Assembly (NCBI RefSeq): GCF_024734075.1
Contig: NZ_CP102850.1
Span: 1,798,001 to 1,862,000, forward strand
DNA from: Gordonia mangrovi
Lineage (GTDB): Bacteria > Actinomycetota > Actinomycetes > Mycobacteriales > Mycobacteriaceae
Reading direction: 5' to 3'
Length of the DNA stretch: 64,000 nt
Of the stretch, positions 55,013 to 59,602 are shown piece by piece. The notes below the pieces were generated by a model, which ran no database searches, was not told where the DNA came from, and saw nothing but the letters and a program-made list of their open reading frames with translations. Position 1 is the first letter of the stretch, and every line of letters starts with the position of its first letter. The position numbers were made by a program, and so were the translations under genes.

Positions 55013-55168
55013 ATGAACCGACCGAAGACGCGTCTGAACTGCCCGTGCGGCGAGGCGATGAAGGGCACCGACGAGGACGATCTGGTGCAGAAGGTCCGCG
55101 AGCATCTCAAGGAGAATCACCCGGGGCACGACTACAGCCGCGACGAGATCTTGTTCATGGCGTATTGA
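55013..55168 (+). CDS. DUF1059 small protein
   Basis: A 51-residue protein of the DUF1059 family (predicted small metal-binding proteins). It carries the CPCGEAMKG motif near the N-terminus and the helical VREHLKENHPGHDYSRDEIL, whose cysteines and histidines could bind zinc. ATG 55013 follows GGTGAGGA. It precedes the trypsin-nuclease fusion gene by 130 bp on the same strand. Its 3' end lies in a set of imperfect 17-bp repeats that continue beyond the stop. Function unknown. Confidence 0.85.
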   Translation: MNRPKTRLNCPCGEAMKGTDEDDLVQKVREHLKENHPGHDYSRDEILFMAY

Positions 55169-55210
55169 CCTTGTTCGTGGCGTCTCGACCGTAGTTCGTG
55201 GCGTCTCGAC
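55153..55210. repeat. three tandem 17-bp imperfect repeats
   Basis: GTTCGTGGCGTCTCGAC occurs at 55173-55189 and 55194-55210, exactly repeated with a 21-bp period. A diverged copy GTTCATGGCGTATTGAC occurs at 55153-55169, overlapping the last codons and stop of the DUF1059 gene. Slippage or duplication of the gene end is the simplest explanation. Confidence 0.65.
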
Positions 55211-55298: not shown

Positions 55299-57359
55299 AT
55301 GGTCACCCTGTTCGCCGAATCCGACCCCGCACGATTGCAGCGTAGGCTCGCCGCCGTCACCAACGGTGACCTCAGCGACACCGAGGTCACGAGGCTCGCC
55401 GACGGCGACGCCTCCGTGCTCGGCGAGTTGGCGCCGATGACCAAGCAGAAGGTTGCCGCGCTCGTCGCGCCCGCGAACCGGGACACCCTCGAGGCGCTGG
55501 TCGGTGGTGCCACCCCGGACTACGTGCCCATCTGTTTCCTCGACCTCGCCCGCACCTCGGCGGCGGCGGTCGCCCGCGTTCTCGACGACCGGCGCCGCCC
55601 GCGCGGGACCGGGGTCATGGTGTCGCCGCACCTGTTCCTCACCAACCACCACGTCATCGAATCCGACGCAGTGGCGGCCGGCGGCAGCATCCAGTTCGAC
55701 TACCAGCTCGGGGTGGATGATCTGCCCGAACCGGTCAGCGAGTACCGGCTGGATCCCTCCACGTTCTTCTGGACGTGCCCGGTCGACGAGCTCGATGTCA
55801 GTCTCGTCGCGGTGGGCCCGCGGCTCACCGGTGACCGCGATCTCGCGACCTTCGGGTGGACCGCGTTGTCGTCGGCAGGGGACAAACACGCCGAAGGTGA
55901 TTTCGTCACCGTGGTGCAGCATCCCGACGGAGACTTCAAACAGATTGCGCTGCGCGAGAATCGGGTGCTCGGCCGGGGCAGCAAGGGCACTACCCTCTAC
56001 TACTCCGCGGACACGCTACGCGGCTCGAGTGGCAGTCCGGTGTTCAACGACGAGTTCGATCTGGTGGCCCTGCACCACGCCGGTGGGTCACACAACGACA
56101 CCCGACTCGACGACGGCCGACCGGTCCCCGATGAGTGCAACGAGGGCATCCGGATCAGCGCGATCGTCACGGCGCTGCGCGGCGTACACGACACTCTCCC
56201 CCCAGGACGCCGAAACCTGTTGGCGGAAGCCCTCAATCCGCCGACCACAGGCATGACTCCACCCGTGTCGGCCGGTCGCGGCGTGGGCGCTCGCGAGCCC
56301 ACGATGGCCGACATCGCCGATGCACCCACCGTCACGATCGCGGCCGGCGATCTCCGGCTCCCACAACTGGTCATCACCCAGGACTCCCGACGACCCGACA
56401 TCGCGGCCGGGGCACGCCCACAGGCGACCACACCGGCTGCGGTCCCCGCCGCCGTGGACTCCATCCCCCTCGAACGCAACGATGCTCCCGACAAGCACTA
56501 CGACGACCGCCGCGGACACCACGACGACTACCTGCCGGTCCGCGTCGGGCCGCCGAAACTGTCTGCGGCACTGCTGAAGGAATGCGCGGTGCCCGGTGGT
56601 GGACGAGCCACCGCCGCGTCGACTCTGCTGCGGTATCACCATTTCTCACTGGTCGTGCACGCGACGCGACGGATGCCGCTGTTCACGATCGTCGACGTCG
56701 ACGGCCGCCGGCTGCGCAGCATCAATCGGCGCACCGGCGCGGTCGAGGCCGCCGAGGTCTGGTACACCGATCCGCGCATCCCCGAGCACGCTCAGCTCGA
56801 TCAGAGCCTGTTCGCTGCGCAGCGGCCCCGGGTGTTCGACCGCGGCCATCTGGTGCGCCGGCTCGACCCGGCCTGGGGCAGTCCCGAAACCGCCAAACGT
56901 GCCGCCGATGACACCTTCCATTTCACCAACTGCTGTCCACAGATCTCGTCGTTCAATCAGCATCTGTGGCAGGGCATCGAGAACTACGCGCTGCGTAACG
57001 CGGCCACCGACAGGGCGCGGATCATCGTCGTCACCGGACCCGTGTTCGGCGTGGACGATCCGCGCTACCGCGAGGTCGCGATCCCGCGCGAGTTCTGGAA
57101 GATCGTCGCGCGTGTGCAGGACGGGCGGCTGCGTGCCACCGGCTTCCTCGCCGACCAGGGCACGGCGCTGGACGCCGCGCTCGCCACCGGCCCGGAGTCG
57201 TTCGCCGACCTCGACGAACTCACCGTGTATCAGACCCCGATCACCGAGCTGGAAAAGCGGACCGGGCTGGGGATGGCGACTCTACGCACCGCCGACACCA
57301 TGCCCGCAGCACTGGAATCGGCTGCCGCGCTCGATGATCTGGGCGACGCGCACTGGTGA
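55299..57359 (+). CDS. trypsin-like serine protease fused to a DNA/RNA non-specific endonuclease
   Basis: A 686-residue two-enzyme protein without a signal peptide. Residues about 1-75 are an unassigned helical N-terminal region. Residues about 78-300 form a trypsin-like protease with H118 (LTNHHVI), D166 (ELDVSLV) and S244 (GSSGSP). A proline/alanine-rich linker follows (about 310-400). Residues about 430-680 form a beta-beta-alpha-metal endonuclease of the NUC1/Serratia type, with DRGHLVRR (general base H517) and FNQHLWQGIEN (metal ligand N553). ATG 55299 is set by GGAGG at 55286-55290; the frame to 55239 is extra. The layout recalls conflict or programmed-death effectors in which proteolysis could release a nuclease. 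This role is inference. Confidence 0.9.
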   Translation: MVTLFAESDPARLQRRLAAVTNGDLSDTEVTRLADGDASVLGELAPMTKQKVAALVAPANRDTLEALVGGATPDYVPICFLDLARTSAAAVARVLDDRRRPRGTGVMVSPHLFLTNHHVIESDAVAAGGSIQFDYQLGVDDLPEPVSEYRLDPSTFFWTCPVDELDVSLVAVGPRLTGDRDLATFGWTALSSAGDKHAEGDFVTVVQHPDGDFKQIALRENRVLGRGSKGTTLYYSADTLRGSSGSPVFNDEFDLVALHHAGGSHNDTRLDDGRPVPDECNEGIRISAIVTALRGVHDTLPPGRRNLLAEALNPPTTGMTPPVSAGRGVGAREPTMADIADAPTVTIAAGDLRLPQLVITQDSRRPDIAAGARPQATTPAAVPAAVDSIPLERNDAPDKHYDDRRGHHDDYLPVRVGPPKLSAALLKECAVPGGGRATAASTLLRYHHFSLVVHATRRMPLFTIVDVDGRRLRSINRRTGAVEAAEVWYTDPRIPEHAQLDQSLFAAQRPRVFDRGHLVRRLDPAWGSPETAKRAADDTFHFTNCCPQISSFNQHLWQGIENYALRNAATDRARIIVVTGPVFGVDDPRYREVAIPREFWKIVARVQDGRLRATGFLADQGTALDAALATGPESFADLDELTVYQTPITELEKRTGLGMATLRTADTMPAALESAAALDDLGDAHW

Positions 57360-57384: not shown

Positions 57385-58119
57385 TCACGGTAAGGGACCG
57401 ACGTTGCGCAGCGACCACCAACCGACCAGGCCGGCGAGGAGAACCAGCGCAAATGACTCGACCCCGTTGTGGCGCCGATCCGGATTCGGGCCGACCCGAC
57501 GTTCGGTGTACAGCACCGCCGAGACGACGACCATCACGATGAGGCTGTGAATCAGCACCATCGTGAGCATCGCGACGCCGCAGGTGATCACACAGCGCCG
57601 GCCGCTGACCAGGCCGTGGCGAGCGCAATCACCCAGCGCCCGCCATCCGGTCACCGCGACGAACGGTCTTCCACCACAACGCGTCAAGGTCTGGCGCCGG
57701 ACCGGTGTGAGCTGCCACGCGGCGGCCGCGAGCAGAATGGCGAGGACGGCGGCCGTCGGCGCACCGTGCGGCCAGAGAACACTCGCCGCGCTGATGCCGA
57801 GCGCGCCGATCACGACCCACACGGCCAGGTAGCCGGCGAGGAAGGCCACCAGCGATGGCAGTCGACGGGACCGTAAACCGGCCTCGCACACACGGACCGC
57901 GTCGTCGGCGACCAGCGGGAACATCATCGCGATCACCATCAGCGTCCACCACATCACCGCGACGCCCAGCGTCGTCAGCGGTGGACCGTCGCGCGCCATC
58001 GGCGTCGCGTGGTGCGCGCCGGCATGCCAGGCCAGCACGGCGACACCGGCCACCACCGCTGACGTGTACACCAGCAGCCGTGGCGCGGGCGTGGGCCACA
58101 CCACCAGCGCGCGGGTCAA
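57385..58119 (-). CDS. DUF2182 predicted metal-binding integral membrane protein
   Basis: A 244-residue protein with about seven membrane helices. The DUF2182 hallmark is the helix TLMVIAMMFPLVADDAVRV (AMMxP motif). A second metal-type region follows (TRCGG, DCARHGLVSGRRCVITCGVAMLTMVL), whose Cys/His positions could bind copper or another metal. It starts 10 nt after the tyrosinase stop, so the two form an operon, and a role in supplying copper to the tyrosinase is an attractive guess. The listed TTG start at 58119 is uncertain; GTG 58104 is possible. Confidence 0.82.
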   Translation of the reverse strand: MTRALVVWPTPAPRLLVYTSAVVAGVAVLAWHAGAHHATPMARDGPPLTTLGVAVMWWTLMVIAMMFPLVADDAVRVCEAGLRSRRLPSLVAFLAGYLAVWVVIGALGISAASVLWPHGAPTAAVLAILLAAAAWQLTPVRRQTLTRCGGRPFVAVTGWRALGDCARHGLVSGRRCVITCGVAMLTMVLIHSLIVMVVVSAVLYTERRVGPNPDRRHNGVESFALVLLAGLVGWWSLRNVGPLP

Positions 58120-58129
58120 CGCTTCACCG

Positions 58130-59602
58130 TCACGCCAGCACCACGACGACGCGGGCGGCGCGGATGTCGGGTGTGGTCGCGGTATCTGCGGGGCCGTCGC
58201 CGAGCACCGCCGGACCGGTCGGGCCGACCGGTTCGAAGCGGACGGTCACCGTGTCGGGGTCCCACAGACCGTCGGCGAGCAGCCGATCCCGCACCGCGGT
58301 GATGTCGAGAACCTTGGTGACCCCGGTGCCGTCCTGTGCGCGACTCGGCACCGACGCCTCCGCGACCCCGAAGGTGGCGATGGTGCCGGCGAGGCGCTCC
58401 GGGAAGTCGGCCGCCGGCGTACCGGCGGGAATGTTCAGGTACACGGTGTAGAGCGGTGCGCACACCATGCCGGTGATGCCCTCCAGCCGCAACAGCACCC
58501 GCCGCTCGTCGAGCGATTCGAGTCCGCGGGTGGCGGGACGCGCCATCTCGATGGTCGTGGCCGTGTCGTCGAAGAGCGGCACGTCGACGACTCCGCCGAC
58601 GACCTCGGGCCGACCATCGCGTGGCGGACCCGATGCGACCTCGATCCGTTCCAGTGGGCCGCGGCGGGCAACCGAGGCGATCGCCGACGGCGCTGCGCTG
58701 CTCTCGTATACGTAGCCCAGCGCCCGGGTGTCGACGACGTCGCCGATCGACCACGACACGTCCCCGCCGGCGAATGCGGGAAAGGTGAAACGCGTGTCGC
58801 GCCAAGCGCTCTCGCCGACTGGGTTGGTGCGGTCGGGATCGATGTCGAGCCACACCTGCCACAGCCGGTCGATATTGGCGTGATGCAGCCAGAACACCGG
58901 ATCGAGTGCCGCGGTGTCGAATTGTCCCATCCAGCCGCGACGCAGCGGTGTGCCGTCGGCGGCGGTGATGACACCGCCCACCAGCACGTGGACGCTGCCG
59001 TGCGGGGCGTCTTCGAGCGACCCCTGCTCGCCCCCGCTGTAGGCCGGCCGGTCGCGTCGCCCGCCGCCGAACGAGTTGGTCCCGTCGTCGGTCGCGTACA
59101 CGTCGTCGCCGAGGGCGCTGAGCACGGCCGGTGCGAGGAAGTCGAGTCCGTCGAGCGGTCGGCCGGCGTTCATCTCCGCAGAGCGCTCGGCGGTGAACAG
59201 CTCGTTGTCCGCCGCCGGATCTCGAAAAGCCGGTGGCAGCGCAGCACCGGCCGGGTCGTCGGGGTCGATGGCGTACCAGTAGGGCAGTGACCAGTCGTCG
59301 TCGTCGAGGAAGCCCTGGATGAGCAGTTCGAAAGCCGCCAGATACATCCGATGCCAGGCGAGGAAGAACCAGCTCCCGTGCTGACACGCACTCCAGCCGT
59401 GGCGGGTGTCGGGGCGGCCGTCTGCGCGGTTTCGGCCATGCAGCGCCGCCTGGAACTGCCACGACCGTGGCTCGGTGGGCGACCCGCCTGGGGGTGGGTC
59501 CAGATCACGCATGGCCCGCACTGCCGACCGATAGGCTTCCAGCACCTCCGGCCAATCACCGTCGTCGCGGGTCAACCGCCAGACATCGTGTCGTGTGCGC
59601 AT
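58130..59602 (-). CDS. tyrosinase/polyphenol-oxidase-type binuclear copper enzyme
   Basis: A 490-residue type-3 copper oxidase. CuA ligands are H55 (ALHGR), H75 and H84 (CQHGSWFFLAWHRMYLAAFE). CuB ligands are H201 and H205 (HGSVHVLVGG) and the histidine pair H240/H241 in DPVFWLHHANIDRLW. C73 sits two residues before H75, as in fungal tyrosinases and plant polyphenol oxidases where a Cys-His thioether forms; typical Streptomyces tyrosinases lack it. A C-terminal domain (about 310-490) may shield the site. No signal peptide and no MelC1-type caddie gene nearby. ATG 59602 follows GAGGAAGG. It could oxidise catechols such as those made by GcoAB. Confidence 0.92.
   Translation of the reverse strand: MRTRHDVWRLTRDDGDWPEVLEAYRSAVRAMRDLDPPPGGSPTEPRSWQFQAALHGRNRADGRPDTRHGWSACQHGSWFFLAWHRMYLAAFELLIQGFLDDDDWSLPYWYAIDPDDPAGAALPPAFRDPAADNELFTAERSAEMNAGRPLDGLDFLAPAVLSALGDDVYATDDGTNSFGGGRRDRPAYSGGEQGSLEDAPHGSVHVLVGGVITAADGTPLRRGWMGQFDTAALDPVFWLHHANIDRLWQVWLDIDPDRTNPVGESAWRDTRFTFPAFAGGDVSWSIGDVVDTRALGYVYESSAAPSAIASVARRGPLERIEVASGPPRDGRPEVVGGVVDVPLFDDTATTIEMARPATRGLESLDERRVLLRLEGITGMVCAPLYTVYLNIPAGTPAADFPERLAGTIATFGVAEASVPSRAQDGTGVTKVLDITAVRDRLLADGLWDPDTVTVRFEPVGPTGPAVLGDGPADTATTPDIRAARVVVVLA

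What the first reader, a model, noticed from the sequence alone, without database searches (positions are those of the whole stretch)
55299..57359. Serine protease fused to a NUC1-type endonuclease, without a secretion signal
One polypeptide carries an intact trypsin triad (H118, D166, S244) and an intact beta-beta-alpha-metal nuclease (DRGH with H517, N553) joined by a long Pro/Ala-rich linker, plus about 75 unassigned N-terminal residues. Both active sites look functional and no signal peptide is seen, so the enzyme is probably cytoplasmic. A protease that could free or activate a non-specific nuclease suggests an inducible self-killing or anti-phage effector.
Basis: partly seen in the sequence, partly recalled or inferred. 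Interest (0 to 1): 0.8.

Follow-up and report, generated by a model that had tools for sequence, protein, structure and literature searches.

The report
Fused protease–nuclease, a known conflict-protein family
This gene makes one protein that is both a protein-cutting and a DNA/RNA-cutting enzyme and seems to stay inside the cell; it belongs to a scattered but widespread family already suspected of acting in bacterial self-killing or defence, and its sequence suggests where it may cut itself.

Summary
Window 55299-57359 (+) encodes a 686-aa protein: N-terminal extension, V8-like (S1B) serine protease with H118/D166/S244, Pro/Ala-rich linker, NucA/EndoG-type nuclease with H517/N553/E561. A hydrophobicity scan found no signal peptide or membrane segment in it or in 91 related fusions. 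Both catalytic sets are conserved and both domains evolve under purifying selection.

It is not a new kind. Kaur et al. 2020 predicted a 'NucA-trypsin' conflict system, including single-chain fusions. Caulobacter LypC (2026) has this architecture: its peptidase is needed for programmed lysis, its nuclease active site is not. The expected defence-island context was not found; the window gene stands alone.

Additions here: fusions in bacteria and archaea; probable lateral acquisition of the window lineage; companion proteases without signal peptides (M43 or S8) beside some relatives; an almost invariant Glu65 before the protease; and, in most relatives, a Glu (392 here) at the linker-nuclease boundary, close to which two natural gene splits fall. 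With V8-type pocket residues these suggest self-cleavage after Glu as the switch that matures the protease and frees the nuclease. That is inference. No structure prediction could be run, and nothing was tested in cells.

The parts
55299..57359 (+). Protease-nuclease fusion gene, 686 aa plus stop
   Evidence: sole PF01223 match of the genome
55286..55290 (+). GGAGG ribosome-binding-like sequence, 8 nt before ATG
   Evidence: read; relatives L002-L004 have a Met at the same place
55299..55490 (+). Residues 1-64: N-terminal extension, variable among relatives, no Pfam match, no signal peptide by the scan; proposed propeptide or regulatory segment
   Evidence: pN/pS of residues 1-65 is 0.43 against the sister gene
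55491..55493 (+). Glu65, in 90 of 92 fusions; proposed protease-maturation cleavage site
55605..56072 (+). Trypsin_2 / S1B (V8, SplB-like) protease, residues 103-258
55650..55652 (+). Catalytic His118
55794..55796 (+). Catalytic Asp166
56028..56030 (+). Catalytic Ser244
56214..56492 (+). Linker, residues 306-398, Ala/Pro-rich, the least constrained part
56352..56378 (+). Residues 352-360 (LRLPQLVIT), the window's counterpart, by eye, of the conserved linker strand 'IPLEVTV'; it narrowly misses the pattern used
   Evidence: pattern in 50 of 92 linkers against mean 1.5, maximum 5, in 200 shuffles; the window row is not among the 50
56472..56474 (+). Glu392 at the linker-nuclease boundary; proposed release site
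   Evidence: LERNDAP in 7 of 7 members of its clade; Glu at -8/-9 from the conserved Tyr in 61 of 92
56616..57272 (+). Endonuclease_NS (NucA/EndoG-type) domain, residues 440-658
56847..56849 (+). Catalytic His517 of DRGH
56955..56957 (+). Metal-site Asn553 (role by homology, recalled)
56979..56981 (+). Glu561 of the nuclease set
55153..55210 (+). Three 17-nt direct repeats, spacing 20-21 nt, upstream of the gene; possible operator

Best explanation
A cytosolic, single-chain, protease-controlled nuclease of the 'NucA-trypsin' conflict kind. The V8-like protease is held inactive in the intact chain. On an unknown trigger (oligomerisation, a stress or an invader signal) it cleaves itself after Glu65, which matures it, and after Glu392, which frees the nuclease; the free nuclease degrades nucleic acid and the cell dies or stops growing. 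Shown here: domains, conservation, no export signal by a hydrophobicity scan, constraint on both domains, scattered distribution, signs of lateral spread, companion proteases beside some relatives. Inferred: Glu specificity, the two cleavage sites, latency, trigger, and lethality.
For: Both active sites conserved; pN/pS 0.19 protease, 0.30 nuclease, 0.56 linker against the sister gene. No export signal in 92 of 92 by the scan. No neighbour family shared by the loci in a clustering of 87 loci, hence no obvious common immunity gene or export system; that clustering is not fully sensitive, it missed the M43 genes found later. The protease is S1B-like: SplB 5.6e-15, V8 1.1e-13; T239 and H259, each in 91 of 92, align with V8 residues that I recall as part of its Glu-recognising pocket. 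Glu65 in 90 of 92 and in 4 of 4 stand-alone protease homologues of the genus. Linker Glu in 61 of 92 against 5.4% per column in the upstream linker. The separate nuclease genes of G051 and Mesorhizobium huakuii begin close to this place. Relatives sit beside a second protease: M43 in 5 loci, S8 in 2, M10 in 1; four genomes of the genus pair a stand-alone protease homologue with S8. Published: the system prediction; protease-activated pro-nucleases in other systems; LypC peptidase essential for lysis.
Against: LypC nuclease mutants lyse normally. The linker Glu is absent at -8/-9 in 31 of 92, among them most cyanobacterial rows, the Sinorhizobium rows, the Bacteroidales, Pedobacter and Chryseobacterium rows and three of four Amycolatopsis, so release at this site cannot be universal. 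The window gene has no sensor, companion protease or defence gene among its annotated neighbours, and M43 and S8 relatives were not found in its genome at strict cut-offs. SplB, the best structural relative, is recalled not to be strictly Glu-specific. No structure could be predicted, so gating was not examined.
Confidence: 0.45

Rival explanations
1. LypC-like: the protease is the functional switch, cleaving another, unlinked effector or the cell envelope machinery; the nuclease is structural or only clears DNA after death.
For: In LypC S296A abolishes lysis whereas H471A, N505A and the double mutant do not; overexpressing LypA and LypB without LypC gave no ghost cells. The protease is the most constrained part of the window gene. 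Stand-alone homologues of the protease exist without a fused nuclease, in four genomes of the genus, each beside an S8 protease.
Against: By linker length and active-site spacing the window protein is in a different subfamily from the short-linker proteins that LypC resembles (LypC sequence itself not seen). No LypA/LypB-like genes among the ten neighbours scanned (genome-wide search not done). All 92 nucleases keep H/N/E (H partly ascertained) and the nuclease is under purifying selection.
Confidence: 0.25
2. A non-classically exported or lysis-released scavenging enzyme that digests protein and nucleic acid outside the cell.
For: V8, Spl proteases and NucA are secreted enzymes (recalled). 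In two Bradyrhizobium loci an S1/P1 nuclease with a signal-like start (by eye) lies next to the fusion, and in one Cupriavidus plasmid the gene lies inside a type II secretion cluster.
Against: No signal peptide or membrane segment in 92 of 92 by the scan; ten companion proteases also lack strongly hydrophobic starts, though for two only the matched part, not the true start, was scanned; no neighbour family shared by the loci.
Confidence: 0.12
3. A polymorphic toxin delivered to other cells.
For: Nuclease toxins of this fold are common (recalled); one Lysobacter relative lies 17 nt from a gene that looks to me like a DUF2235/Tle1 protein (not searched).
Against: No delivery domain in Pfam for 66 of 66 members scanned; no recurring neighbour that could be an immunity gene in the clustering, which looked only at ORFs of 60 aa or more.
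Confidence: 0.06
4. A housekeeping degradative enzyme used in developmental or starvation autolysis.
For: Present in cyanobacteria and filamentous actinobacteria, many of which I know to be multicellular; Kaur et al. report an association with multicellular habit (29 of 45 organisms).
Against: Sporadic: fusions in 5 of 59 genomes of the genus, and any match at E 1e-30 or better in 3 of 148 other genomes of the phylum; signs of lateral spread.
Confidence: 0.12

Closest known systems
NucA-trypsin 'System 3' (Kaur, Burroughs, Iyer, Aravind 2020, eLife, PMC7159879; section 32 read, other passages seen)
   Same: Endonuclease_NS plus trypsin-like peptidase, fused or in one operon; a further S8 peptidase in some; proposed proteolytic deployment of the nuclease.
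   Different: Described as mostly alphaproteobacterial (45 organisms in its Table 1); the window member is, by its relatives, actinobacterial and solo, without an EAD1 match, TM segment or STAND neighbour. M43/M10 companions, Glu65/Glu392 and the V8-type assignment are not in the passages I read.
LypC of Caulobacter crescentus LypABC (Banks et al. 2026, Nat Microbiol, PMC13236601; abstract, sections 9, 10, 13 and passages read)
   Same: N-terminal serine peptidase, flexible linker, C-terminal endonuclease in one chain; genomic setting outside defence islands.
   Different: Works with CARD-peptidase LypA and NLR-like LypB; shorter linker (S-to-H 175 residues by the paper's numbers, 273 in the window); its nuclease residues are dispensable for lysis.
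Nuclease-protease pairs of Hachiman/AVAST/Lamassu/DRT, and Canu (Tuck et al. 2025, Science, PMC12799240; parts 1-2 of 6 and passages read)
   Same: A protease (trypsin-like, or caspase in Canu) that activates a pro-nuclease by cleavage; shown there experimentally.
   Different: Nuclease is of the metallo-beta-lactamase type and a separate gene; cleavage after Ile in gating insertions (conserved Gly proposed in Canu); part of larger immune systems.
V8/SplB/glutamyl endopeptidase (S1B) proteases
   Same: Sequence family, catalytic triad, T239 and H259 positions.
   Different: Those are secreted enzymes without a nuclease (recalled).
NucA / EndoG nucleases
   Same: DRGH-type nuclease with conserved N and E.
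   Different: Those carry export or mitochondrial targeting and no protease (recalled).

Membership tests
NucA-trypsin System 3 | Endonuclease_NS domain | tested here: met
   Pfam 6.2e-41
NucA-trypsin System 3 | Trypsin-like peptidase in the same chain or operon | tested here: met
   Pfam 8.9e-20, same chain
NucA-trypsin System 3 | EAD1 fusion or EAD1 partner (only in a subset) | tested here: inconclusive
   No EAD1 in the protein or genome, but the family rang in none of 14 control genomes, so absence is not proven; not required by the definition
NucA-trypsin System 3 | Additional peptidase or STAND gene in the operon (some members) | tested here: not met
   Ten neighbours scanned, none such; relatives of the M43 and S8 companions not found in the genome at E 1e-20 and 1e-60. 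Optional feature
NucA-trypsin System 3 | Proteolysis deploys the nuclease | not testable with these tools
   Needs protein experiments; also only a prediction in the source paper
LypABC / CARD-NLR | Peptidase-linker-endonuclease protein | tested here: met
LypABC / CARD-NLR | Adjacent CARD-peptidase and NLR-like genes | tested here: not met
   Flanks are DUF1059, PpoB2, tyrosinase, lipase, SHOCT protein; a genome-wide search for LypA/LypB was not made
LypABC / CARD-NLR | LypC-like short linker | tested here: not met
   S-to-H 273 against 163-166 in L123/L021 and 175 in LypC by paper numbers
Gated MBL nuclease-protease pair | MBL-type nuclease as a separate gene | tested here: not met
   Nuclease is Endonuclease_NS, same chain
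S1B (V8-like) protease | Sequence relation and aligned triad | tested here: met
   Profile search E 5.6e-15 to SplB, 1.1e-13 to V8; the name S1B is recalled
S1B (V8-like) protease | Glu specificity | not testable with these tools
   Only pocket residues T239/H259 seen
Defence-island gene | Enrichment of defence genes nearby | tested here: not met
   76 PADLOC families over 139 adjacent genes, 148 over 74 distant ones; family counts, not gene counts, and only the first 25 families of each are shown

The most novel reading that the evidence does not exclude
A one-gene, one-chain switch: a Glu-specific V8-like protease, inactive until it cuts itself after a nearly invariant Glu at its own N-terminus, which then cuts after a second Glu to free an EndoG-type nuclease; a cytosolic zymogen cascade folded into a single polypeptide and spread laterally through bacteria and archaea, needing no sensor gene.
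Probability: 0.2. Interest if true: 0.7.

Novelty: new member of a known kind. Interest (0 to 1): 0.42.

Why it matters
EndoG is a nuclease of animal cell death, and protease-activated nucleases are a theme shared by bacterial immunity and apoptosis. A self-contained version without sensor or partner would be a compact model for how a protease gates a nuclease. The conserved Glu65 and Glu392 turn a general prediction into two point-mutation tests, and the LypC result makes it worth asking which of the two activities kills.

Tried and rejected
Defence-island membership: rejected on the PADLOC near/far comparison. These tables give families, not genes, one gene can match many models, and proteins over 560 aa were left out, so they argue only against a clear enrichment. 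Of 164 adjacent genes 139 were scanned; of 84 distant ones 74. Single cases exist: SIR2 and HerA-like genes near the Rhizobium johnstonii copy, a ThsB/TIR-like neighbour (1 of 139; I take it to be the one next to the Afipia copy) and a BrxL neighbour (1 of 139).

Phage carriage: 4 weak nuclease-only hits among phage records and 2 weak, protease-part hits of 45 pattern stretches in viral contigs; rejected. Plasmid carriage is real: 124 records match in some part, 21 with one place covering at least 80% of the protein, rhizobia most numerous.

Extra domain in the N-terminus: none in Pfam for 66 of 66 scanned members. Conserved neighbour family: none, but my gene caller missed or misjudged some genes (six loci without a called fusion, and the M43 genes did not cluster), so weaker associations may be missed. 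A metallophosphatase theme (5 of 139 neighbours) was looked at and not pursued. E65 as exact counterpart of the mature V8 N-terminus: only approximate, by extrapolating the alignment some 3-4 residues away; the distance to the catalytic His is 53 here, 55 in most relatives, 50 in V8 (recalled). Literature: ten searches in open PMC papers; I found no experimental study of the long-linker subfamily in those listings, which does not show that none exists. PA1327 as the PAO1 name of the Pseudomonas relative is recalled; only the listing was seen.

Rows dropped: L097 and L099 (frame differs between the two ends of the match) were left out of the 92-row alignment; five long-branch rows (L021, L056, L089, L090, L091) were left out of the AU test. 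The group for that test was named after the tree had been seen, and the five rows of the window's unnamed genus were put in it as actinobacterial by inference.

Full report
What is there. The open reading frame at 55299-57359 (+) is as described. Pfam finds Trypsin_2 and Endonuclease_NS above their cut-offs and no third family. The best solved nucleases are EndoG and NucA; the best solved proteases, with a 51-row profile, are SplB, V8, other Spl proteases, glutamyl endopeptidases and exfoliative toxins, a group I know as S1B. The gene is the only match to itself, and the only Endonuclease_NS match, in its 5.39-Mb genome.

Family and distribution. The best 80 were kept, and in 78 of them one open frame spans the match to both domains. 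They come from Actinomycetota, Pseudomonadota, Cyanobacteriota, Bacteroidota, Planctomycetota, Acidobacteriota, Chloroflexota, Bacillota and archaea. 124 plasmid records match in some part, 21 over at least 80%. In the window's genus 9 of 59 genomes match: five full fusions and four with a stand-alone protease homologue, two of these four also with a separate nuclease match. In an even sample of the phylum 3 of 148 other genomes match at E 1e-30 or better. In a quick tree the window gene, three genes of its genus and three of Mycolicibacterium form one group (SH-aLRT 100) inside a mixed, largely proteobacterial part, away from the main actinobacterial group that holds the fifth genus member. 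A tree with all actinobacterial rows together is rejected (p-AU 0.006; five long-branch rows left out, group chosen after seeing the tree). I read this as lateral acquisition. GC of the gene (68.6%) matches the window (68.0%), so nothing marks it as a recent foreign insert. Of 16 loci compared, only the sister genome G041 keeps the flanking genes.

Conservation. In 92 fusions the protease triad is intact in 91 and the nuclease set in 92, with the ascertainment noted above. None has a hydrophobic segment beyond my thresholds. Between the window gene and its sister, pN/pS is 0.19 for the protease, 0.30 for the nuclease, 0.56 for the linker and 0.43 for the N-terminal 65 residues; two other pairs show the same order for linker against domains. 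So both enzymes are being kept.

Neighbours. A clustering of 87 loci found no neighbour family shared widely; it missed some genes, as the next lines show. In the 81 loci where the fusion was gene-called, 21 had a co-directional gene within 120 nt upstream and 17 downstream. What recurs, in a minority, is a second protease of another family: M43 in five loci within 2.5 kb (G047, Rhodococcus jostii, R. maanshanensis, Actinocorallia, Actinomadura; in G047 almost touching), S8 in two Pseudarthrobacter loci, M10 beside the Stanieria gene. In the genus this M43 gene occurs in 1 of 59 genomes, beside the fusion, and this S8 clade in 4 of 59, exactly those with the stand-alone protease homologue and next to it each time, plus one extra copy elsewhere in G008. 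Ten companion proteases showed no strongly hydrophobic start; for two of them (L045, L098) only the matched part was scanned. The window genome has neither companion at the cut-offs used.

Candidate switch. Glu65 is kept in 90 of 92 fusions, just before the protease core, in most rows as E-[RAKS]-[IVL]-[IVL]-G-x-x-D; extrapolating the alignment to V8 places it some 3-4 residues before the mature V8 N-terminus. T239 and H259, each in 91 of 92, align with V8 residues that I recall as part of its Glu-binding pocket. At the other end of the linker a Glu lies 8 or 9 residues before a conserved Tyr in 61 of 92; it is followed by Ala, Arg or Lys in 50 of these 61, as position 66 after Glu65 is in 80 of 92. 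The window's is Glu392. Between them a short strand-like motif (IPLEVTV) stands in 50 of 92 linkers against a mean of 1.5 in shuffled ones; the pattern was drawn after looking at some rows, and the window's own version narrowly misses it. The stand-alone proteases of the genus, and the split protease of Mesorhizobium huakuii, end some 10-35 residues after a similar strand (by eye), and the separate nucleases of G051 and M. huakuii begin close to the place of the second Glu. These facts fit self-cleavage at both Glu residues. 31 of 92 lack the second at this place, so other members must differ.

What is known. Kaur et al. 2020 describe the combination as a predicted conflict system. Tuck et al. 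2025 show, for another nuclease type encoded by a separate gene, that a trypsin-like protease turns a pro-nuclease on. Banks et al. 2026 show that LypC, of the same architecture, needs its peptidase but not its nuclease residues for lysis, that LypABC overproduction kills, and that the operon lies outside defence islands.

Verdict. A real and probably functional gene; a member of a described family in a solo, apparently laterally spread form.

Noticed in passing
window 55153-55210: Three 17-nt direct repeats (GTTCRTGGCGTMTYGAC) at 20-21 nt spacing between the DUF1059 gene's end and the fusion gene; the pattern has exactly 3 exact occurrences in the whole genome, all here.
   Followed up: partly
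window 57388-59602 (-): PpoB2-type copper chaperone next to a tyrosinase with DUF7868, convergent with the fusion gene; both kept beside it in the sister genome G041.
   Followed up: no
   Followed up: partly
L123 (G144) and L021: Short-linker fusions that resemble LypC by active-site spacing, 43% identical to each other and far from the window lineage.
   Followed up: partly
L018, L080 (Bradyrhizobium): Fusion gene directly followed by an S1/P1 nuclease gene.
   Followed up: no
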